Source of the DNA: an uncultured Mollicutes bacterium
Lineage (GTDB): Bacteria; Bacillota_I; Bacilli_A; RFN20; CAG-449
DNA: 14,034 nt
Reading direction: 5' to 3'
NCBI GenBank assembly: GCA_900551385.1
Contig: URVS01000013.1
Coordinates: 1 to 14,034, forward strand
The notes under the pieces: generated by a model
Databases searched by the model: none
Seen by the model: only the letters and a program-made list of their open reading frames with translations
What the model was told of the DNA's origin: nothing
Translations under genes and position numbers: made by a program
Part shown: piece by piece, positions 4,184 through 14,034 of the stretch
How the letters are laid out: each line of letters starts with the position of its first letter
Position numbering within the stretch: the first letter of the stretch is position 1

Positions 4184-5071
4184 TTAATTTTTATAATCAA
4201 AGACTGCTTCTATAAAGAAATGATCACTATAAAATGTTGGTCCAGTTTCTTTTAAAATTTTAAATTCTTTCGTTTCAAATTCTCCTTTTGTAGAAAATAT
4301 ATAATCAATAGGTGAATTCGGTCCTACTCTAGTACTCTCATCAAGTTCTTTACCATAATCATGAAATGTGCATGATGGCTCAGTATTTTTTAAATAAGAA
4401 TCATCAAAATAATCTGTTAATACTTTATAAGTATCTTCTTCATTTTCTTTATAAAAATTTAAATCTCCAGAAAAGAAACCAATAACATTTTTTTCTTTCA
4501 TTTTATTTATAATTTGTTCTGCACTATTTTTTCTTACTGGAACATCTTTAGTATAATCAAAATGAGAATTATAATATGATATCTCTTTATTAGTTAATTT
4601 ATCTTTTAAAATAACAAATGTACATACTCTTGGATATTGGGCTCCCCATTCAGTTGCGATATATCCAGGTCCTGCTTCTGAAGAAGGTCCTAACCAAAAC
4701 GCTCCACTTTCAATCAAAGAAAATCTATCAACAGAATAAAATATTCCACTTGCTTCATCAAAACTTCCACCTCGATACATTAAAACATGTTCATATCCAT
4801 ATTTTTCAAATTCAGGTCTTAAATAATCTTCCCAAGCATGCGTTTCTTCTTGCACACCAAATAAATCTGGCATTTCTTCTTTTATTTTATTAGCTACCAA
4901 TTCATGTTTATCTTCTGTTGCCCCTTGATCTAAATTACAAGACATAATTTTAAGTGACTTATCAATTTCTTCTTTTATTTCTTCACTTGTTGTTTGTGAA
5001 GACGAAATTGAATTATTATTACAGCCTACTAAACATAATAAGCTTGCTATTATTATAAATTTTTTATTCAT
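4184..5071 (-). CDS. Endonuclease/exonuclease/phosphatase-fold lipoprotein
   Basis: A 295-residue surface lipoprotein. MNKKFIIIASLLCLVGC is a lipoprotein signal with lipobox LVGC, so Cys17 would be lipidated and the enzyme tethered to the outer membrane face after a Ser/Thr/Glu-rich linker (18-38). The catalytic domain (about 39-293) has the Mg2+-dependent DNase I/sphingomyelinase-like motifs: SCNLDQG with Asn46, VQEE with Glu75, NSHFD with His170, SGDLNF with Asp203 and Asn205, SPIDYIF with Asp256, and YSDHFF with the Asp283-His284 catalytic pair. All key residues are present, so it should be active. Substrate is unknown: related proteins hydrolyse nucleic acids, sphingomyelin or phosphoinositides. 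It follows the glycosidase gene by 14 bp and is last in the operon, which favours a role in handling a phosphorylated glycan, lipid or extracellular DNA (inference). Confidence 0.85.
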   Translation of the reverse strand: MNKKFIIIASLLCLVGCNNNSISSSQTTSEEIKEEIDKSLKIMSCNLDQGATEDKHELVANKIKEEMPDLFGVQEETHAWEDYLRPEFEKYGYEHVLMYRGGSFDEASGIFYSVDRFSLIESGAFWLGPSSEAGPGYIATEWGAQYPRVCTFVILKDKLTNKEISYYNSHFDYTKDVPVRKNSAEQIINKMKEKNVIGFFSGDLNFYKENEEDTYKVLTDYFDDSYLKNTEPSCTFHDYGKELDESTRVGPNSPIDYIFSTKGEFETKEFKILKETGPTFYSDHFFIEAVFDYKN

Positions 5072-5085
5072 TTTTCATTCCTCTT

Positions 5086-8061
5086 TTATATATTGTCCCA
5101 ACCAGCTTTAGAAAAATCTACTTTAACACCAACATCTTCATAATCTTTTTCACTCCAACAACCATTAGATTGTGATATAGCATATAAAATATGTTTTGAT
5201 GCTCTTCTTAATAAAATTGTAGTATCATGAGGCGCTTCTAAATAAGCAGCATGTGCACTATAAGAAGCATTTCTTAAAAGCCATAAATCATTTCCACCTC
5301 TAAGACCACTATTAACAGGCATTAACGAATTATAACACCAATCAGTCACAACTACTCCTTTAAAACCCCATTCATCTCTTAAAATATCATTTAATAATGC
5401 ATTTTGAGCGCCACTCCAAACTCCACCAATACGTGAAAAAGATGACATGATTCCTAGTGCTTTACCTTCTTTAACATATATTTCAAAACCTTTTAAATAT
5501 ATTTCTCTAATACTTTGTTCATTAGCCCATACTTCTAATCCAATTCTATTTTGTTCTTGTTCATTTAAAGCAAAATGTTTAGCATAAGTATATACACCAT
5601 ATTTACTTGTACCAATAGAAGTCATTGCTCCCATAACACCAGTAATAAGAGGATCTTCACTATAATATTCAAAATTTCTTCCTCCTGTAGGACATCTATG
5701 AATATTCATACCAGGAGCATACCATCCAGTTAAACCCATACTAGCACCTTCTTTACCTAGACTTTCGCCTAATAATTTAGCACATTCAGGATTCCAAGAA
5801 GAAGCTACTACAACTTCTGAAGTATAACCAGTACCTTTAATTTGTACAGATGCAGGACCGTCATCATCATAAGTAGTTCTTTTAGAAATAGATTTAATTT
5901 CAGCAGTTTGAAATCCTCCATTATCCACAAGATTTTCCATATCAGTAATTGATAATTGATTTAAAAATTTATCCCATTTCTCATCATTATAATCAACATT
6001 TTTCATCATTGCCATAGTAATTTTATCATTGCCATAATCAACTCCTTGAGTTGGTAAATCTTCTTTTATTTGATTATCAGCATAAGTTTTATTTTTACTT
6101 GCATTAATTGTTTTATCACTTGCTACTTTATTTATTTTATTTTTAGTAGGAAATGTATCATTCCAATTAGATCTAGATAAATATTCAATAGGAGTTGAAT
6201 TAGGACCAAATTCAACATCAAATAATCTAGTTTGATATTTTTCATTAGTATCTGAAGTTAAATAATTAATATCTTCCTTTAAATTAAAATTGATTAAATT
6301 GTCTTTATTTTGAGGTACTTCACTTAATTTATAAGCATTATCTCTTAAAGATAAAACATAATCTCCTTTTTCTAATAAATAACAACCATTTTCATTATCC
6401 CAAGAAGCTAAAGATTTTAAATCAATATTAATTCTAGCAAAGAATGTTTCATTTGGTTCAATTAAGTTTGTCTTTTCAAAACCAACCAATTCTACATGTG
6501 ATTTTTCTATTCTTGATGTATATGGAGCGGTATTATAAATTTCTACAACTTCTTTACCTGCCATATTTCCAATATTTTTAACTGCTACTTGAATAGATAT
6601 TTTTTGATTAACCAAATCAACAGTATAATCATTAATATATTTTTCAAATTTAGTATAAGATAATCCTTCTCCAAATGAATATTGCACATAATCTTCATAT
6701 TTAAAATTAATATCATCATTTGCTCTAGTCACATAATATCTATACCCAACATATATTCCTTCTAAATATTCAACAAAATTAGCACTTTTATTAGAATAAG
6801 ATAATGTAGAATCAGGGCCAAAAGAAGCAAAAGAAGGTGAAGTAGTAATATCATAAGGCCAAGTATCAACTAATTTACCACTTGGATTAATTTTTCCACT
6901 TATTGCTTGAGCAACAGCTTTATTACCAGTTAATCCAGGATGACCTATCCATAAAACAGAATCAATACCTTTTTGATTTAACACTCCAAGTTCCATAACA
7001 TTAGAAGAATTAATTAAGATAATTACTTTTTCAAAATTATCTTTTAACATATTAATCATATCATTTTCTCGACTTGTTAATTGTAAATCACTTCTTGAAA
7101 AATCATGATCTTCACTACCTGCTCTACTAACACAATATAATGCAGTAGAAGAATAATTTTTAGCATTTTCTAATAATGTTTTACCATCTAAACCATCATA
7201 AATTTTATTGTATGAAGAGACTTCTGGTTCATTATCATAAGGAAATTTAGTAGGCGCTATATAATTACCGACATTAGTACCATAAGCATTAAATTGACAA
7301 CTAATATCATAATCTGTTTTAGTTATTTTATAACTTTTTGATTCATAATAATTAGCAACTAAATTATATAAATTTGTATTATATTCAAATCCTTCTTCAA
7401 CTAAAGCTTTTTCAAGTCTAGTTGCATGGAAATCATTTTCTCCATAATTAGCGTTAGTGATAAATACTCCACTTCCACCACCGCCATATAACATACCAAA
7501 TGCTGATGATCCAAAAACATTAATTTTATTATTTTCTTCTTTATTTAAAGGTAAAACATCATCATCATTTTTTAATAAAACCATACCTTCTTGTTCTAAT
7601 GTAACAACATTTTCTTTAGCTTCACCAATTGCTAAACGAGCACTTTCTGAATCATTATCTAAATGCTTATCTGGATTTAAAGTAAATTTAATTAAATCCC
7701 ATGCTACAGTTAAAGTAGGTACCGCTAATAAACATACAATTAATGAACATGAAAGAATAGAAATTGTTGGAACTTTTATTTTATTCCATTTTAAGACTCT
7801 ATTAACTGGTTTACTTTCATTTTTTAATTCTTGTTTTCTTTCATTGCCTTTTAATTTTTTAAATTTTTCTTTTGTTTCTTTATATTTTAATTCTTCATCT
7901 TTAGTAAATTTTAATCTCCCTAACATCCAGACATAAACAAAATATATTACTCCAAATACTAATATAAATCCTGCTAAAACATATAAACTTAAATACCATG
8001 GAAAAGAATCAAGCTTCCAACCAGGAATTATTTCTATATCACCAATGCCATCTAAAAACAT
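5086..8061 (-). CDS. Membrane-anchored glycoside hydrolase family 3, permuted domain order
   Basis: A 991-residue retaining beta-glycosidase (beta-glucosidase or beta-xylosidase type) predicted to act outside the membrane. Two hydrophobic helices (about 21-48 and 98-121) flank a Lys/Glu-rich segment that should be cytoplasmic, placing the rest outside. The usual GH3 order is reversed: first the alpha/beta-sandwich domain (about 150-470; EGMVLLKNDDDVLPL at 158-172, YSFGEGLSYTKFE at 461-473), then a fibronectin III-like domain (about 480-580; GKEVVEIYN), a ~100-residue linker, and finally the TIM barrel (about 690-965). The barrel holds DDGP (733-736), GRNFEYYSEDP (794-804), KHF (828-830) and VVVTDW (904-909) with the probable nucleophile Asp907. 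Such inversion is known for GH3 enzymes of Ruminococcus albus and Butyrivibrio fibrisolvens. The gene starts 3 bp after the CBM gene, with AGAGGG six bases before the ATG. The exact sugar cannot be read from sequence. Confidence 0.9.
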   Translation of the reverse strand: MFLDGIGDIEIIPGWKLDSFPWYLSLYVLAGFILVFGVIYFVYVWMLGRLKFTKDEELKYKETKEKFKKLKGNERKQELKNESKPVNRVLKWNKIKVPTISILSCSLIVCLLAVPTLTVAWDLIKFTLNPDKHLDNDSESARLAIGEAKENVVTLEQEGMVLLKNDDDVLPLNKEENNKINVFGSSAFGMLYGGGGSGVFITNANYGENDFHATRLEKALVEEGFEYNTNLYNLVANYYESKSYKITKTDYDISCQFNAYGTNVGNYIAPTKFPYDNEPEVSSYNKIYDGLDGKTLLENAKNYSSTALYCVSRAGSEDHDFSRSDLQLTSRENDMINMLKDNFEKVIILINSSNVMELGVLNQKGIDSVLWIGHPGLTGNKAVAQAISGKINPSGKLVDTWPYDITTSPSFASFGPDSTLSYSNKSANFVEYLEGIYVGYRYYVTRANDDINFKYEDYVQYSFGEGLSYTKFEKYINDYTVDLVNQKISIQVAVKNIGNMAGKEVVEIYNTAPYTSRIEKSHVELVGFEKTNLIEPNETFFARINIDLKSLASWDNENGCYLLEKGDYVLSLRDNAYKLSEVPQNKDNLINFNLKEDINYLTSDTNEKYQTRLFDVEFGPNSTPIEYLSRSNWNDTFPTKNKINKVASDKTINASKNKTYADNQIKEDLPTQGVDYGNDKITMAMMKNVDYNDEKWDKFLNQLSITDMENLVDNGGFQTAEIKSISKRTTYDDDGPASVQIKGTGYTSEVVVASSWNPECAKLLGESLGKEGASMGLTGWYAPGMNIHRCPTGGRNFEYYSEDPLITGVMGAMTSIGTSKYGVYTYAKHFALNEQEQNRIGLEVWANEQSIREIYLKGFEIYVKEGKALGIMSSFSRIGGVWSGAQNALLNDILRDEWGFKGVVVTDWCYNSLMPVNSGLRGGNDLWLLRNASYSAHAAYLEAPHDTTILLRRASKHILYAISQSNGCWSEKDYEDVGVKVDFSKAGWDNI

Positions 8062-8064
8062 ATA

Positions 8065-11000
8065 TTACCCTCTCATTCTTAATTTATATTTTATAAATGC
8101 ATAAATACCAAGACCAATAACAACTACACAAGCTGAACCCAGTGTTATACTTGCAATAGCAGTATTAGAAAGACCTTTACTTGGTTCATCTGGAGTTACA
8201 TCTTCATTAGGCTTTATATCATTTTTTATTACATTTAATATTCTAGTTCTTTCTGTAATATTATTTTCTTCATCACTAACAGTAACAATTATTGTATATT
8301 CACCTGCTTCTAAAGGAATGAAAGAATTATTCTCTACTTCCATTCTTTTTTGTCCAGCTACACCATATTTATAAAATACAGATACATTAATAATTAAATT
8401 ATCTTTACTAGTTTTGTTATCTTCATAATCAAAATTAAATTCAACTTTTTCATTTGCTTTTGGATTATTTGTTAAAATCTCTATAACACTAATAGTAGGA
8501 GCAATTTTATCTTTAATAACTCTAGTTAATGTAGTTTCTTTATCAACACCAATAACTAAATTATCAATATTGAATGGAGCCCCATTTTTATTAGTAAATA
8601 CAATTTCATTTTCACCAGATAAAATATCAACATTAGAAATAGTCAATTCTCTCCAACTATACCAACTATCTCCACCCGGAAATCCAGGGAAAGTTGTTTG
8701 ATCAAAAGTTAATGCTTTTCCATTTAAAGTCATTTCTACAATATCACTAATCATCCCAGCTCCTCCACATGGAGCAACCCAAAGAGATAATTTAATGTTT
8801 TTATTATCTTTATTGGAAGAGAAATTCCAAGTTAATGAATTACCTATATTAGAAAAATTACCAACACATTTTCCTTCACTAGTTGGTCTACTATTTGTAG
8901 ATGCTCTTTCAAGAATAAATCCTTCGTTTGGATCAGAACATTCACCATTAATTTCAGCATCTTCTGCTTCAAAAGAATAAGCTCCACAATCACTACATAT
9001 TCCATTAACAAAAACGTGTTCATCACTAACAATAGGAGTATCAGGTTTAGTAGTAGCTTTTAAAACTTCATTATTATAAACAACAACTTCCATATAATCT
9101 ATATTAAGTCCATAATAATTATTTCCTTCTAATTTAATAGTGTTACTACCTTTTTTCAAAGAAACATCATTCATTGTTACTGCTTGAAATTTATAATAAT
9201 CTCCATCAAAAGAAGGCATAGATGGTTCACTTGAAAAGATTCTATCTTCATTTACTTCTACCCACATTGCATCATTAGGACTATTAGTTACTACTGCTGG
9301 ACCAAAAGCTGCTACATAAAATTTAATAGTTGCTTTTGTTACATCTTTATCAGCATCTAAATACCAAAATACTTGATTATCACCATCTCCAAAATTACCA
9401 ACACATTTACCATTAGAACATTTTTCATTTTGAACAATAAATGTTGATTCATTATTTCTAGGTGTTCCTGCTAAAGTTCCATCTTCTGCTTCAAATTTAT
9501 ATGTTATGCCTTTTTCAGTTGATTCAACATAACTAGAGACATTAACTGTTTCATCAAAAAATACTTCTAAATTATCAATATTTGCTGAATATCCTAAATT
9601 TTCTAAAACTAAGACATTATTTCCTTTATTAAAAGTTGTTTCATTAATTTCAATACAAGTCCATTCATACCAATGATCTTGTGGCATGTTAATAGTAGAA
9701 GTTGTTTTATAAGACACTTCTTGATTATTTAATTTTAAACTTAATGCTTCATTAATGTTTTTTGCACCATCCATTCCTGGAGCATAATATAAATTCATAG
9801 AAGCCTTTGCTTCTTTATCTAAAGAAAATTTCCAAATAATTTTATTTCCTTTATTAGACCAGTTACCAACACATTTACCACCACTAGTAGGACGGGAATT
9901 ACTTGAATTTCTTTCAAGAATAAAGCCATCATTATTATCAGTACATATTCCTGTAATTTCACCATTTTCTGCTTCAAAAGAATATGCTCCACATGAACAT
10001 CTATTATCAACATAAGCATGAGTATGAACTAATTCTCCTCGAGATAAAGTAATATTATCTGGAGTATTAATTACAAAATAATCGATATTCATTGCATAAT
10101 TACTATTTGCCTCTAATTCAATTTTATTTTTACCTTTTACTAAAGTAGTTGAATTAAATACAAGAGGTTTATAATCGTGCCAACTAGAACCATCAAAAGA
10201 TGGCATTACACTATCTTTAGCGGTTAATCTTTGTCCGTTTACTCTTACAATCAAAGCATCACTTGGATTAATTTGACCACCAATTGCTACTACATAAAAA
10301 GTTATTTTTGCTTCTAAAACTTCTTCACTTGAATTAACATACCATGTTGCTAAATCATCACCATTACCCCAGTTACCAATCAATTTTCCACCAGAACAAG
10401 AAGAATTAGGACAAATTAATGATGGATTATCATAAGTCGGTGTTCCTACTATAGCATCACAACTTTCTGCTTCAACTTTATAATCTTTAGTAATTACTTC
10501 TTCATAACTTGAAATATTTACATCACTAGAAAAATCAACAACTAAATTATCAATATTTGCTGAATAACCAATATTTTGTAAAACAATAATATTATTTCCT
10601 TGAACAAAATTAGTTTCATTAGTTATAAGTTCACTCCATTCATACCAATGATCTTGTGGTCTAGGAGCAGTTTGTGTAGTAGAAAAAGAAATATCTTTTC
10701 CATTTACTTTAAGACTAAAAGCATTATTACTTTCAACAGCATTTTCACTTCCTGGAGCATAAAATAAATGCATCAATGAAGTAGAAGCTTTATCTAAAGC
10801 AAATTTCCAAGTAATACTATTTCCATTAATTGACCAATTACCAACACATTTTCCTTCACTAGTTGGTCGAGAATTACTCGAATTTCTTTCTAAAACAAAT
10901 CCTTGTTCACTATCTGAACATGTTCCACCAATTAGACCATCTTCAGCTTCGAAAGAATAAGCTCCACATGAACATCTATGACCTTCAAATGAATGATCAT

Positions 11001-11082
11001 GTTCACTAGCGTTTACTATACTATAATTTACACCACATAAAGCAAGCATAGAAACAGCTAACAATTTTTTTATATGTTTCAT
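8065..11082 (-). CDS. Secreted membrane-anchored protein with five CBM6/35-like modules
   Basis: A 1005-residue surface protein, probably a glycan-binding scaffold with no catalytic domain of its own. Order: Sec signal peptide (1-25; charged MKHIKK, hydrophobic core, cut near VNA-S); five jelly-roll modules resembling CBM6/CBM35 (A1 37-185, B1 200-340, A2 361-510, B2 527-670, A3 695-845); an Ig-like beta domain (about 858-953); a Pro/Asp linker; a transmembrane helix (about 974-997); and the cationic tail KYKLRMRG. Modules begin with FEAE and end with NIDNL or NIDY. No LPXTG sorting signal, so anchoring is by the helix. A longer reading from 11,136 exists, but that codon lies upstream of the predicted -10 box. 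AGGAGG (11,088-11,093) is only 2 bases from the ATG at 11,085 and 5 from this one. First gene of the operon with the GH3 enzyme and the phosphoesterase lipoprotein. Confidence 0.85.
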   Translation of the reverse strand: MKHIKKLLAVSMLALCGVNYSIVNASEHDHSFEGHRCSCGAYSFEAEDGLIGGTCSDSEQGFVLERNSSNSRPTSEGKCVGNWSINGNSITWKFALDKASTSLMHLFYAPGSENAVESNNAFSLKVNGKDISFSTTQTAPRPQDHWYEWSELITNETNFVQGNNIIVLQNIGYSANIDNLVVDFSSDVNISSYEEVITKDYKVEAESCDAIVGTPTYDNPSLICPNSSCSGGKLIGNWGNGDDLATWYVNSSEEVLEAKITFYVVAIGGQINPSDALIVRVNGQRLTAKDSVMPSFDGSSWHDYKPLVFNSTTLVKGKNKIELEANSNYAMNIDYFVINTPDNITLSRGELVHTHAYVDNRCSCGAYSFEAENGEITGICTDNNDGFILERNSSNSRPTSGGKCVGNWSNKGNKIIWKFSLDKEAKASMNLYYAPGMDGAKNINEALSLKLNNQEVSYKTTSTINMPQDHWYEWTCIEINETTFNKGNNVLVLENLGYSANIDNLEVFFDETVNVSSYVESTEKGITYKFEAEDGTLAGTPRNNESTFIVQNEKCSNGKCVGNFGDGDNQVFWYLDADKDVTKATIKFYVAAFGPAVVTNSPNDAMWVEVNEDRIFSSEPSMPSFDGDYYKFQAVTMNDVSLKKGSNTIKLEGNNYYGLNIDYMEVVVYNNEVLKATTKPDTPIVSDEHVFVNGICSDCGAYSFEAEDAEINGECSDPNEGFILERASTNSRPTSEGKCVGNFSNIGNSLTWNFSSNKDNKNIKLSLWVAPCGGAGMISDIVEMTLNGKALTFDQTTFPGFPGGDSWYSWRELTISNVDILSGENEIVFTNKNGAPFNIDNLVIGVDKETTLTRVIKDKIAPTISVIEILTNNPKANEKVEFNFDYEDNKTSKDNLIINVSVFYKYGVAGQKRMEVENNSFIPLEAGEYTIIVTVSDEENNITERTRILNVIKNDIKPNEDVTPDEPSKGLSNTAIASITLGSACVVVIGLGIYAFIKYKLRMRG
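8548..10974 (-). repeat. A-B-A-B-A internal duplication of carbohydrate-binding modules
   Basis: Approximate coding spans are A1 10,528-10,974, B1 10,063-10,485, A2 9,553-10,002, B2 9,073-9,504 and A3 8,548-9,000. A modules share AYSFEAE(D/N), a Cys pair 24 residues apart (C55/C79, C380/C404, C715/C739), LER-S-NSRPTS-GKCVGN and a final NIDNL. B modules share GTP, IGN/VGN-(W/F)G(D/N)GD, SMPSFDG or VMPSFDG, and NIDY. A 33-base stretch of A1 (10,836-10,868) is identical in A3 (8,856-8,888), which points to duplication or gene conversion of a two-module unit. Confidence 0.88.
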
Positions 11083-11087
11083 CATTT

Positions 11088-11128: not shown

Positions 11129-11157
11129 ATTATCATTTATTTTGAAAGGGGTTTCAA
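11129..11157 (-). promoter_or_regulatory. Predicted sigma-A promoter of the CBM-GH3-lipoprotein operon
   Basis: On the minus strand, TTGAAA (11,152-11,157) and GATAAT (11,129-11,134) are separated by exactly 17 bp. Start of transcription is expected near 11,122, giving a 40-base leader to the ATG at 11,082. An inverted repeat, TTGAAA-gggg-TTTCAA (11,142-11,157), covers the -35 box and could be a repressor site or chance. Paired direct repeats lie 11 bp upstream of the -35, the usual place for an activator. Confidence 0.7.
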
Positions 11158-11168
11158 TTTGGTTTTCG

Positions 11169-11201
11169 AAAGTGGTCATTTAAACAACTAAAGTGGTTAT
11201 T
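11169..11201 (-). promoter_or_regulatory. Paired direct repeats, 21-bp phasing, candidate LytTR operator
   Basis: Written on the plus strand, AAAGTGGTCATT (11,169-11,180) and AAAGTGGTTATT (11,190-11,201) match at 11 of 12 bases, and their starts are 21 bp apart, two helical turns. This is the arrangement bound by dimers of LytTR regulators such as AgrA, and a LytTR gene lies just upstream. The half-site does not match the Agr-type consensus I know. A weaker third copy, AAAGGGGTT, starts at 11,145. The right-hand repeat overlaps the stop codon of the kinase gene. Confidence 0.6.
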
Positions 11202-12522
11202 GTTTTAAAAATAAAATATTAACTGAAAAAATATTATCATTAGTATTAATAGATAAAGTACCATTATATTTTTCACATATCATTTTTATTGATTGCATAC
11301 CATATCCATGATAATTTTTATCTTTTTTTGTAGTAATTGGTAAACCATTTTCAAAATGTAATTGTTTTGAGAAGAAATTTTGTATAGAAATAGAAACAAA
11401 ATCTCCTTGTCCTTTAATAATTAAACTTATAACTCTTTTTTGTGCTTCATCTTTAAGTGCTTCTATAGCATTATCCACTAAATTACCAAATAATGAATAA
11501 GCATCAACATCATCCATAAAAGATAATAATTTACCATCAGCAATACAAGTAAAACGAATATTATTTTTATAACATAACAAAGATTTTTCTGTAAAAATAA
11601 TATCTAAAGCATTATTACCTGTTTTAATATTAGAATCAAAAATTTCTATAGATTGTGATATTTCTTCAATTACTTGAGGATTTAAAGTTTGGTTATTACC
11701 ATAATTTCTAATAAAATATTTTAAATCATGACATTTTTGATTAATTAACGCTATATTTTCTTTACTTAATTCATATTGCTTTTCTTCATTATATTTCATT
11801 TGACTTATAACATCTAAATTCTTTCTTAATTCTTGTCTAGTAGAAGTTTCAAAAGCAAAAAATTCAAACATTATACATAATAAAATATTAATTATCGCTA
11901 TTGTACAAATATATGTTTTATCAAAATTAGCTTTTGAATAATTATCAACAAAAGCATTTAATGATATATCAATAAAAATAAATATTATTCCAATAATTAA
12001 AAATAATGGATTATTAATTCTTATTCCTTCATTTCCTTTAATCTTCCTTGAAAAAAATAAATATGCAAAAAAATAAATAACTAGATAACTAGCAAAATAA
12101 CAAATTGCATCTTGATAATTTATAAATAAAAATTTATTTTGAAATGAATAAATCCCATTTTCTCCATTTACAATACCAAAAATAGTAACAATAAATAAAT
12201 ATAATTCATAAGCGATATGTTCTGTTGTATAACCAATAATAGAAATAAATAATAAATTCTTTTTATTTTCTTGTAAGCAAAATATCATCATCAAATAAAC
12301 AACAATCCAAAAAATAAAAAACATTGAAGAAATATAAAATGCATTATCAGAAAATAATGGAAAAATAAAAGAAATCTCTAAGCATAATAAAATTGAAATA
12401 ATATATCTTAAAATGAAAGGATTTTTCTTTTTCAATTTTACACCAAACATAGAAATTGAAATTATTAACATTATAATAAATATTGGACGATAAAATAAAA
12501 TTCTTGACATTGGATATATCAT
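11197..12522 (-). CDS. GHKL (AgrC/LytTR-partner type) sensor histidine kinase
   Basis: A 441-residue membrane kinase that would autophosphorylate and signal to the LytTR regulator encoded just upstream. The N-terminal half (about 10-222) has roughly six or seven hydrophobic segments with short loops and no large extracellular domain, as in peptide-sensing AgrC-type kinases. A dimerisation helix (225-262) leads to NQKCHDLKYF with phospho-acceptor His265. The GHKL ATPase follows: FGNLVDNAIEAL (345-356, N box) and YHGYGMQSIKMICEKYNG (404-421, G box). The start overlaps the regulator stop as ATGA. No AgrB or AgrD precursor gene is in the window, so the signal is unknown and could be a peptide or something else. 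About 60 bp separate its end from the predicted promoter of the CBM operon, and no terminator is visible between them. Confidence 0.88.
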   Translation of the reverse strand: MIYPMSRILFYRPIFIIMLIISISMFGVKLKKKNPFILRYIISILLCLEISFIFPLFSDNAFYISSMFFIFWIVVYLMMIFCLQENKKNLLFISIIGYTTEHIAYELYLFIVTIFGIVNGENGIYSFQNKFLFINYQDAICYFASYLVIYFFAYLFFSRKIKGNEGIRINNPLFLIIGIIFIFIDISLNAFVDNYSKANFDKTYICTIAIINILLCIMFEFFAFETSTRQELRKNLDVISQMKYNEEKQYELSKENIALINQKCHDLKYFIRNYGNNQTLNPQVIEEISQSIEIFDSNIKTGNNALDIIFTEKSLLCYKNNIRFTCIADGKLLSFMDDVDAYSLFGNLVDNAIEALKDEAQKRVISLIIKGQGDFVSISIQNFFSKQLHFENGLPITTKKDKNYHGYGMQSIKMICEKYNGTLSINTNDNIFSVNILFLKQ

Positions 12523-13055
12523 AATTTTTCTCCAATAAAATTATTTAAACAAATTAAAAAATCTTTCTTTTTTCTTCTTGATAATGGTATTTGCATATCA
12601 TTAGTTAATACAATCATATCTTTCTTTATTGATTTAACATATCTTAAATTTATTAAATATGAACTATCACTTAAACAAAAACCACAATTAAACAATTTAT
12701 TTTGCATATCTTTTAATGATCCATTTAACAAATAAGTATTATTCTTAGTAATAAAATTTAAAACATGATCATTAACAGAAATATATAATACATCAAAAAT
12801 TGAAATACATACTTTTTTATCACCATCATTTACAACAAATTTTTTCTTTTCGTTTTCAATAATTGAAGGTAAAATTCTTTTTAAAGCTAAAGTAAAATTC
12901 CAATAAGATATAGGTTTTACAATAAAATCAGAAGCATTTACTTTATAACCTTCAACAGCTAAATTGGACATATTAGTAACAAATACAATAATTACATTAT
13001 GATCTTTTTCTCTTAATTTTTGAAATAAAAACTCTTCTCGTTCTTTAATCGACAT
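12519..13055 (-). CDS. LytTR response regulator, receiver domain truncated
   Basis: A 178-residue DNA-binding regulator. The C-terminal LytTR domain (about 76-176) is intact, including ISIFDVLYISVNDHVLNFIT and the DSSYLINLRYVKSI segment. Only the second half of a receiver domain precedes it: FLFQKLREKD, VIIVFVTN with Thr27 and DFIVKPI with Lys47-Pro48. The acidic pocket and the phospho-acceptor Asp, which should lie 50-60 residues earlier, are missing. Two in-frame TAA codons stand just before the ATG, and the nearest GGAG is 14 bases away, a poor ribosome site. The break coincides with the change in base composition near 13,050-13,110, so it is probably a remnant or an assembly join. A short phosphorylation-independent regulator is the alternative. 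The paired kinase overlaps its stop codon. Confidence 0.8.
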   Translation of the reverse strand: MSIKEREEFLFQKLREKDHNVIIVFVTNMSNLAVEGYKVNASDFIVKPISYWNFTLALKRILPSIIENEKKKFVVNDGDKKVCISIFDVLYISVNDHVLNFITKNNTYLLNGSLKDMQNKLFNCGFCLSDSSYLINLRYVKSIKKDMIVLTNDMQIPLSRRKKKDFLICLNNFIGEKL

Positions 13056-13083
13056 AGCTGTTTATTATTCTCCATAATCTTTA

Positions 13084-13112
13084 ATTATACTGTAATTTAT
13101 AATCCAAATTAC
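13084..13112 (-). promoter_or_regulatory. Possible -10 box and small hairpin before the regulator
   Basis: On the minus strand, TATAAT (13,084-13,089) lies about 29 bases before the regulator ATG. No good -35 hexamer is found 16-18 bp further up. The region there is a hairpin of GTAATTT and AAATTAC with a 7-base loop (13,092-13,112). In DNA this AT-rich a lone TATAAT is weak evidence. Confidence 0.3.
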
Positions 13113-13365
13113 TGTTTTGATAGTTCCAAGATAACTGTGTTTCCTATATTGTAAGGCTTTCTGATGTGTTTGTCACTCTTTTGTTTCTATCAGGTTACTA
13201 ATGTAAAAGTTCGTTTACCTTTGCTTGAACAGCAGAATAATTTGGCTGCTGTACTTGGGAAGTACACACCTGTCGTGATGAGCAGTTTTCTTATTTTGAT
13301 TGGATTTAAGTCCAGAGAATGCCCTGGATTCTGGATGCTATTTGCGTAACCACCTCCTCGCAGGC

Positions 13366-13467
13366 ATGAAAAAAGCCCATCTGCACGAAGCAGACAGGCT
13401 AAAGGAAAAAATGCTATTAGCTGTGTATCAAAGTCATCCTTTCAGCATACAATATATTTATCAGTAA
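13366..13467 (+). CDS. Possible small ORF, 33 codons, unknown
   Basis: ATG to TAA giving a 33-residue peptide that begins MKKAHLHEADRLKEKM and ends in IYQ. The frame stays open back to 13,300, so it could also be the tail of a decayed longer gene. The residues look reasonably protein-like, but the ribosome site is poor (AGG one base before the ATG), and the minus-strand terminator hairpin lies inside it. No family recognised. Confidence 0.15.
   Translation: MKKAHLHEADRLKEKMLLAVYQSHPFSIQYIYQ
13369..13400 (-). terminator. Orphan rho-independent terminator on the minus strand
   Basis: Minus-strand stem AGCC..TCTGC paired with GCAGA..GGCT, with a 2x2 internal mismatch, a 5-base loop and a following run of six T (13,374-13,369). 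The form is classic, but no minus-strand gene lies immediately upstream of it (to its right). It may belong to an unrecognised short RNA, or be left from a rearrangement. Confidence 0.6.
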
Positions 13468-13478
13468 ATTTATCGACT

Positions 13479-13513
13479 AACCGGTTGATATTTTTGCAAA
13501 CGTGTGCTATAAT
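13479..13513 (+). promoter_or_regulatory. Promoter and candidate operators of the toxin-antitoxin operon
   Basis: TTGATA (13,485-13,490) and TATAAT (13,508-13,513) are exactly 17 bp apart, with an extended -10 (TGC before TATAAT). Two palindromes overlap it: AACCGGTT (13,479-13,486) on the -35 edge, and GCAAACGTGTGC (13,496-13,507; one mismatched pair) filling the spacer. Phd/RelB-type antitoxins usually bind such palindromes to repress their own operon, so these are candidate operators (inference). Confidence 0.7.
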
Positions 13514-13539
13514 GCAATCAAAGAAAGGAGTTGACGATT

Positions 13540-13863
13540 ATGGCTTCTGTTATGAGTGCTATTACCAACACTGTTCCAATCACCCAATTCAACCGTGGTC
13601 TTGCCGGAAAAATATTTGAAGATGTCAAGCAGTGCGGTGCCAAGGTTGTTATGAAAAACAATGCTGCCGAATGCGTTCTCATCTCCCCGGACGAATATGT
13701 CCGTTTAATGGATGAATTAAATGATGCTCGTCTGCTGGCTGTTGCTTCTGAACGTATGGCACACTTTGATCCCACCTCTTTGATTTCTGAGGAAGAAATG
13801 AACCGCCGTCTCGGTGTTACAGAAGACGATCTCGCCGGTTTTGACGAGGTAGAAATCGAATGA
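13540..13863 (+). CDS. Phd/YefM-family antitoxin
   Basis: A 107-residue type II antitoxin. The N-terminal part (about 6-60) has the Phd/YefM DNA-binding fold pattern: ITQFNRGLAGKIFEDVKQCG, KVVMKNNAAECVLISPDEYVRLMDEL. The C-terminal tail is acidic (DDLAGFDEVEIE), as expected for the part that wraps the toxin. It would bind and neutralise the toxin encoded next and repress the shared promoter. AAAGGAG (13,524-13,530) stands nine bases before this ATG; the in-frame TTG at 13,531 touches the ribosome site and is not the start. Its stop overlaps the toxin start (ATGA). Codon use and GC content differ clearly from the AT-rich genes to the left and resemble Clostridia. Confidence 0.85.
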   Translation: MASVMSAITNTVPITQFNRGLAGKIFEDVKQCGAKVVMKNNAAECVLISPDEYVRLMDELNDARLLAVASERMAHFDPTSLISEEEMNRRLGVTEDDLAGFDEVEIE

Positions 13864-14034
13864 GCTGGAAAGTTGAATACCTCCCTGAAGCAGAAAAAGA
13901 CCTCAAAGGTTTAGATGGTAGCCAGCGCAATCTTGTTCTGAAAGCCATCAAAAAAGTTCAGCAAAATCCACTGCCTGTTGATGAACAGGGCTACGGCAAA
14001 CCGCTCGGCAATCACAACAGCACTAACCTTGCAG
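13860..14034 (+). CDS. RelE/ParE-family toxin, 3' end beyond the window
   Basis: The first 58 residues are visible, starting MSWKVEYLPEAEKDLKGLDG and reaching GKPLGNHNSTNLA at the window edge. The V-x-Y-x-PEAEKDLKGL opening and the following GKPL-(G)N pattern are typical of RelE/ParE/YoeB-fold toxins of about 85-95 residues. These either cut mRNA on the ribosome (RelE) or poison gyrase (ParE). The catalytic C-terminal half is not in the window, so the two cannot be told apart. The start overlaps the antitoxin stop by four bases (ATGA), giving coupled translation. Confidence 0.82.
   Translation, partial: MSWKVEYLPEAEKDLKGLDGSQRNLVLKAIKKVQQNPLPVDEQGYGKPLGNHNSTNLA

What the first reader, a model, noticed from the sequence alone, without database searches (positions are those of the whole stretch)
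11169..11201. Two 12-bp direct repeats exactly 21 bp apart in front of the surface operon
AAAGTGGTYATT occurs twice with two-helical-turn phasing, 11 bp upstream of a TTGAAA-17-GATAAT promoter, between a LytTR/GHKL two-component pair and the CBM-GH3-lipoprotein operon. The geometry is that of LytTR operators, but the half-site differs from Agr-type sites, so it may define a new recognition sequence. This is the best evidence that the sensor pair controls the glycan genes.
Basis: partly seen in the sequence, partly recalled or inferred. Interest (0 to 1): 0.7.

Follow-up and report, generated by a model that had tools for sequence, protein, structure and literature searches.

The report
LytTR activator operator before glycan operon
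Two near-identical short DNA words, two helix turns apart and ten bases before a promoter, look like a docking site for the neighbouring sensor pair's own regulator, so the pair probably controls the adjacent sugar-binding and sugar-cutting genes; the type of site is already known.

Summary
The repeats are real and where stated. On the promoter (minus) strand they read ACCACTTTA-12 bp-ACCACTTTC-10 bp-TTGAAA-17 bp-GATAAT, before the CBM/GH3/lipoprotein operon: the published layout of LytTR-activated promoters. The half-site is not new; ACCACTT-like words are printed for streptococcal HdrR/BrsR and E. coli BtsR sites. DNA of the window's own orthologous locus could not be reached, so sister loci were used. 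106 of 153 distinct regulators of this type (window included) have a GH3 gene nearby. In promoters of such GH3 operons the best direct-repeat period is exactly 21 bp in 31 of 113, against 24 of 312 control promoters. Some orthologous modules keep the half-site while modules within one genome differ. A same-family genome has ACCACTCTT-12-TCCACTCAT-10-TTGAAA before a GH3 gene. The -35 is one arm of a palindrome one mismatch from a cre site, and cre-like sites are enriched in this promoter set. In this contig the regulator gene is truncated, its first half replaced by unrelated DNA. Verdict: new member of a known kind; the bolder open reading is sensor/GH3 circuits with private operators.

The parts
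11189..11197 (-). distal LytTR half-site ACCACTTTA
   Evidence: sequence, pattern search, coordinates
11168..11176 (-). proximal LytTR half-site ACCACTTTC, 12 bp after the distal one (period 21)
11152..11157 (-). -35 hexamer TTGAAA, 10 bp after the proximal half-site
11129..11134 (-). -10 hexamer GATAAT, 17-bp spacer
11142..11157 (.). perfect palindrome TTGAAACCCCTTTCAA; its left arm is the -35; one mismatch from the cre consensus TGWAARCGNTWNCA (consensus recalled)
8065..11085 (-). first target gene: secreted CBM-like repeat protein (start taken by eye at 11085 after AGGAGG; the mechanical ORF starts at 11136 inside the leader)
   Evidence: relative P0020 (53% identical) carries CBM_6 44.1 bits; the window protein itself has no Pfam match over cut-off
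5086..8061 (-). second target gene: GH3 with permuted domain order (C-domain, Fn3, then N-domain) behind N-terminal hydrophobic segments (the latter by eye)
   Evidence: Pfam
4184..5071 (-). third gene: lipoprotein by eye, weak endonuclease/exonuclease/phosphatase match below cut-off
   Evidence: Pfam 20.2 bits, cut-off 24.5
11197..12522 (-). GHKL sensor kinase (HATPase_c_5)
   Evidence: Pfam 77.8 bits
12519..13055 (-). truncated LytTR response regulator: LytTR domain whole, receiver domain missing its first half (homology to P0001 starts near 13019)
   Evidence: Pfam LytTR 59.2 bits, Response_reg only from profile position 60; alignment to intact P0001
13056..14034 (.). unrelated DNA of higher G+C (34-45%) with a Phd/YefM antitoxin match below cut-off; it takes the place of the 5' half of the regulator gene

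Best explanation
The repeats are the operator of the neighbouring LytTR response regulator. When the GHKL kinase senses its (unknown) signal it phosphorylates the regulator. Two regulator monomers bind the two ACCACTTT words on one face of the helix, 10 bp upstream of -35, and recruit RNA polymerase to the CBM-GH3-lipoprotein operon. A cre-like palindrome that contains the -35 may let a CcpA/LacI-type protein shut the promoter when preferred sugars are present. Shown: sequence, spacing, promoter position, domain content, the recurring regulator-kinase-GH3 linkage, and 21-bp phased repeats in a share of sister promoters. Inferred: binding, activation (rather than repression), phosphorylation, the signal, and the cre function. 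In this contig the regulator gene is cut, so the statement holds for the intact form (such as P0001), not for this copy as assembled.
For: Layout 9-12-9-10-TTGAAA-17-GATAAT matches Tables 2 and 3 of PMC6193735: ACCACTT words, mostly 12-bp spacers, bias to 10 bp before -35. The E. coli BtsR probe in PMC4847170 contains ACCGCTTAC-12-ACCACTCAG. GH3 genes lie within -3 to +6 genes of 106 of 153 distinct regulators, peaking 1-3 genes away, against 13 of 493 gene positions at offsets of 5-8. Best repeat period is 21 in 31 of 113 GH3-operon promoters, and in 8 of 31 from regions fetched after the idea was formed; controls 24 of 312, Fisher p 4.6e-7. Same-family L184: ACCACTCTT-12-TCCACTCAT-10-TTGAAA-16-TATAAT before a GH3 gene in a co-directional run that also holds a regulator and kinase. 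L001 and L008 carry ACCACTTAY-type pairs just downstream of their kinases. cre-like sites (<=1 mismatch): 31 of 112 GH3 promoters, 10 of 312 controls.
Against: No DNA of the direct ortholog (P0002 and P0020; longest contig 390,186 bp for both) was obtained. 82 of 113 GH3 promoters do not have 21 bp as best period, and none of the 6 whose operon starts with the regulator gene does. Of the 31 that do, 12 rest on weak repeats (score under 7.5). Control promoters also have 21 as their commonest period. Several close regulator pairs show no shared word, for example L051/L056 at 87% identity and L056/L069 at 79%. Regulator-versus-half-site covariation is weak (Mantel r 0.117, p 0.048; 22 loci, window not among them). 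The window's palindrome lacks the central CG of cre. The regulator is truncated here.
Confidence: 0.82

Rival explanations
1. The repeats are an operator, but of another LytTR protein in the genome (for example a free-standing HdrR/BrsR-like LytTR regulator), and the adjacent pair controls something else.
For: ACCACTT is a common word of LytTR regulatory systems without a kinase; covariation of half-site with the adjacent regulator is weak; many same-order genomes carry several LytTR genes.
Against: A share of sister loci place 21-bp phased repeats at the GH3 promoter next to their own regulator-kinase pair; three orthologous module pairs keep the word while modules in one genome differ. Exact ACCACTT-N14-ACCACTT occurs in 14 of 273 same-order genomes, fewer than the reversed control pattern (about 66 of 273 by my count of the table), and 8 of the 14 sites lie inside ORFs of 150 aa or more, so no shared regulon word is visible.
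Confidence: 0.11
2. The repeats are a repressing or dual-function operator: the regulator keeps the operon off until the signal arrives.
For: Nothing in the sequence fixes the sign of regulation.
Against: Position just upstream of -35, without overlap, is the published activator position.
Confidence: 0.05
3. Chance or by-product repeat with no regulatory role, kept partly because the distal copy overlaps the kinase stop codon.
For: The window has five other 12-mer near-repeats within 40 bp; the promoter match alone is at shuffle level.
Against: Joint occurrence of a known LytTR word twice at 21 bp (expected 1.1e-4), at 10 bp from -35, beside a LytTR gene; similar layout in L184, L001, L008.
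Confidence: 0.02

Closest known systems
HdrR/BrsR LytTR regulatory systems (LRS), Streptococcus mutans and others (PMC6193735; passages and Tables 2-3 seen by 'find')
   Same: ACCACTTAN-like half-sites, mostly 12-bp spacer, bias to 10 bp before -35
   Different: LRS pair the LytTR protein with a membrane inhibitor and autoregulate; here a receiver-LytTR regulator with a GHKL kinase, and the site serves a glycan operon
BtsS/BtsR (YehU/YehT) of E. coli at the yjiY promoter (PMC4847170 and PMC5552118, passages)
   Same: Kinase plus LytTR regulator; the PMC4847170 probe contains ACCGCTTAC-12-ACCACTCAG
   Different: Pyruvate sensing and a transporter target; another phylum
LytTR regulators next to secreted GH3 enzymes in Butyrivibrio proteoclasticus B316 (PMC2914790, passage)
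   Same: LytTR regulator close to a membrane-anchored GH3; a common function was suggested for three loci
   Different: The passages seen give no operator; there the GH3 has a C-terminal membrane helix; here the operator phase is shown across Clostridia and Bacilli
GlyA1-type permuted GH3 (PMC5104943, passages)
   Same: C-domain, Fn3, then barrel domain order
   Different: No LytTR or two-component mention in that text (0 occurrences)
AgrA of Staphylococcus (PMC4227749, search listing only; site recalled)
   Same: LytTR domain, paired direct repeats near 21 bp
   Different: Different half-site word

Membership tests
LytTR-type operator/promoter | Two direct repeats of 9-11 bp separated by 11-13 bp | tested here: met
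   9 bp, 12-bp spacer; definition seen in PMC4847170 passage
LytTR-type operator/promoter | Repeats just upstream (about 10 bp) of a -35 element | tested here: met
   10 bp to TTGAAA-17-GATAAT; rule in PMC6193735 passages
LytTR-type operator/promoter | A LytTR regulator encoded beside it | tested here: met
   LytTR 59.2 bits, cut-off 22.6; the receiver domain is truncated in this copy
LytTR-type operator/promoter | Specific binding and activation by that regulator | not testable with these tools
   needs gel shift and reporter
HdrR/BrsR-class LytTR regulatory system (LRS) | LytTR protein paired with an inhibitory membrane protein instead of a kinase | tested here: not met
   partner is a GHKL kinase (HATPase_c_5 77.8 bits); intact regulator P0001 has a receiver domain with the D57 that is invariant in the 10-sequence alignment
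Agr-type LytTR sites | Half-site [TA][AC][CA]GTTN[AG][TG] (recalled) | tested here: not met
   ACCACTTTA/C lacks GTT
GH3-linked LytTR two-component locus | Regulator-kinase pair within a few genes of a GH3 | tested here: met
   window and 105 others of 153 regulators; permuted domain order tested in the window only
CcpA cre site | TGWAARCGNTWNCA with central CG (consensus recalled) | tested here: inconclusive
   TGAAACCCCTTTCA, one mismatch, central CG absent; no CcpA gene looked for

The most novel reading that the evidence does not exclude
Gut Clostridia and Bacilli carry many paralogous LytTR-kinase/GH3 modules, each with a private operator: the 21-bp phase and promoter position are fixed while the half-site word drifts between paralogs and is kept between orthologs, so the circuits stay insulated, much as dedicated regulators insulate Bacteroides glycan loci; a cre site adds shared sugar repression. 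The window is one such module.
Probability: 0.42. Interest if true: 0.6.

Novelty: new member of a known kind. Interest (0 to 1): 0.42.

Why it matters
It ties a widespread, little-studied sensor class to surface glycan enzymes in uncultured gut bacteria and offers a simple, testable operator rule (21-bp phase at the GH3 promoter) by which, in favourable cases, a sensor's target and half-site can be read off a genome; that is a route to finding what glycans these sensors answer to.

Tried and rejected
Rejected: 'new recognition sequence' (ACCACTT is in print). Rejected: one order-wide ACCACTT regulon. With 1 mismatch 14 of 18 family genomes match, but at fewer sites than the reversed control pattern; exact pairs in 14 of 273 order genomes, again fewer than the control.

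Tried without result: own genome (none held); viral contigs for kinase and P0020; P0020 in 18 family genomes (0 of 18; the tool warns that an empty answer without a positive control shows nothing); junction DNA in plasmids and phages (no match); P0002 in phages gave only matches below 60% identity, not pursued. Mantel test of regulator versus half-site: weak.

Literature: LytTR with GH3 gave 4 papers; passages of two were looked at. PMC2914790 states the linkage; PMC5320581 lists one Roseburia locus with LytTR regulator and kinase but no GH3. The listings showed, by title and start of abstract, no paper on operators of LytTR/GH3 loci; few were opened, and only open-licence papers are held.

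Rows dropped before counts: the 66 short loci L081-L146; regulators identical in residues 30-110; promoter regions under 80 nt or with N (124 GH3 genes became 113 promoters). The regulator set is what I fetched: 80 loci and 80 regions, chosen from the and 30 lists, not all of them. In one search one promoter (L055) is counted twice, L028/L030 are near-identical, and the window's own operator is not among the 31 because its mechanical ORF start let the script merge the operon with the regulator; the window is one of the 15 of 32. In one search the window gives two of the 17 cases, and L138/L139 are the same site in two related genomes.

Full report
Observation. The two 12-mers are at 11169-11180 and 11190-11201, 21 bp apart; the six other matches with up to 2 mismatches all have 2. 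The genes they stand between are on the minus strand, so the promoter strand is the one to read: ACCACTTTA (11197-11189), 12 bp, ACCACTTTC (11176-11168), 10 bp, TTGAAA (11157-11152), 17 bp, GATAAT (11134-11129), then a short leader to the likely start codon at 11085 behind AGGAGG (start by eye). The expected number of ACCRCTT pairs at exactly 21 bp in a Markov sequence of this composition is 1.1e-4. As a mere 12-mer repeat it is not rare in this window (6 pairs, the other five inside ORFs), and the promoter match alone is at shuffle level. The weight lies in word, phase and position together.

What the word is. PMC6193735 (passages and Tables 2-3 seen) lists ACCACTTAT-12-ACCGCTTAT for BrsR, ACCTCTTAG-12-ACCACTTAA for HdrR and several ACCACTTAC-12-ACCACTTAC-like sites, with a strong bias to 10 bp before -35. 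PMC4847170 (passages) says that LytTR sites share structure but no common consensus, and its BtsR probe contains ACCGCTTAC-12-ACCACTCAG.

Neighbourhood. Pfam finds LytTR and GHKL HATPase_c_5 in the pair, and GH3 with permuted order (C-domain 160-440, Fn3 504-573, N-domain 741-909) in the 991-aa protein. The CBM-like label of the first target rests on its relative P0020 (CBM_6 44.1 bits). The regulator is truncated: homology to the intact 236-aa P0001 (97% identical) begins near base 13019, so the phospho-acceptor half is missing. G+C rises from about 20% to 34-45% there. The DNA beyond matches parts of 6 of 295 genomes drawn from the order of an uncultured Lachnospiraceae genome, best 67% identity over about 490 bp, and nothing in the plasmid and phage collections. 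Insertion and assembly chimera cannot be told apart here.

Sister loci. No genome is held for the window. Its methionyl-tRNA formyltransferase is closest to G044/G045 (65-66% identity) within the order of G001, an uncultured Bacilli genome. Regulator relatives came (80 loci; 44 of 279 genomes at E<=1e-40), with 80 regions fetched. Among 153 distinct regulators (window included), 106 have a GH3 homolog within -3 to +6 genes; by offset the counts are 34 of 132 at +2, 26 of 121 at +3, 24 of 137 at -2, 19 of 145 at -1, but 13 of 493 at offsets of 5-8. The set was chosen by similarity to the window's regulator, so this is a rate for its subfamily. The link was remarked for three loci of Butyrivibrio proteoclasticus in 2010 (PMC2914790 passage).

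Phase. Without assuming any word, direct repeats lying 8-12 bp before a promoter-like pair in the first 146 loci plus the window had period 21 in 17 of 21 cases (periods 14-35; the window supplies two of the 17). A looser scan of 186 loci plus the window gave 30 at 21 bp and at most 9 at any other period. For GH3 operons near a regulator the best-scoring period was 21 in 31 of 113 promoters, the next commonest period having 10; in regions fetched afterwards, 8 of 31. Twelve of the 31 are weak repeats, and none of 6 operons that begin with the regulator gene is among them. Promoters at least 4 genes from any regulator or kinase gave 24 of 312, itself the commonest class, so the uniform expectation understates background; against these controls Fisher p is 4.6e-7. 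The regulators' own promoters gave 10 of 99.

Words. L184 in same-family genome G047 has ACCACTCTT-12-TCCACTCAT-10-TTGAAA-16-TATAAT before a co-directional run GH3, 265 aa, 214 aa, regulator, kinase. L001 (Hungatella effluvii) and L008 (Lachnoclostridium An169) have ACCACTTAC/GCCACTTGC and ACCACTTAT/ACCACTTAT shortly after their kinases. Others use different words, such as ATGCATTTYAC (L028), ATTCGTGCGG (L035), CGCCGAGTTACGCA (L198). Between genomes G025 and G026, three orthologous modules keep theirs (L155/L156 AAAATACGAATT; L161/L188 ACGAAATT, though 21 is not the top period in L188; L157/L218 TTTACG), while modules inside one genome differ. Other close pairs show no shared word, and overall covariation is weak (r 0.117, p 0.048). 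Across genomes, ACCACTT pairs are rarer than the reversed pattern. Together this suggests private operators with fixed geometry, without proving them.

Second element. The -35 TTGAAA is the left arm of a perfect palindrome TTGAAACCCCTTTCAA (11142-11157), one mismatch from the recalled cre consensus. cre-like sites (<=1 mismatch) occur in 31 of 112 GH3 promoters and 10 of 312 controls. Of 32 promoters with best period 21 (window included), 13 have one; L184 and L164 carry theirs over a TTGAAA 8 nt after the repeats, and 9 have one (1-2 mismatches) starting 41-58 nt upstream of the end of the second repeat. Double control, activation by LytTR and sugar repression, is a likely logic; the missing central CG in the window leaves this open.

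Verdict. A LytTR operator of a known word class, at the promoter of a glycan operon beside its sensor pair. Binding and sign are inferred. New member of a known kind, with a broader pattern worth following. On checking, the confidence and the novel-case odds were lowered slightly because of the 12 weak repeats and the 6 negative operons.

Noticed in passing
window 11142-11157: Perfect 16-bp palindrome TTGAAAGGGGTTTCAA containing the -35, cre-like; cre-like sites are enriched in LytTR-linked GH3 promoters.
   Followed up: yes
window 13019-14034: The regulator gene loses its first half at a junction to higher-G+C DNA with a weak Phd/YefM antitoxin match and the start of a second gene; mobile insertion or assembly chimera.
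   Followed up: partly
L184, L185, L158 (genome G047): One genome of the window's family holds at least three separate LytTR-kinase/GH3 loci.
   Followed up: partly
control promoters: Promoters four or more genes from any regulator also show a mild excess of 21-bp period repeats (24 of 312), perhaps further targets or a general helical-phase effect.
   Followed up: no
L252 (G013 contig C92): ACCACTTAA-12-ACCACTTAA with a possible -35 10 bp downstream, outside any ORF of 150 aa or more; possible LRS-type promoter.
   Followed up: no
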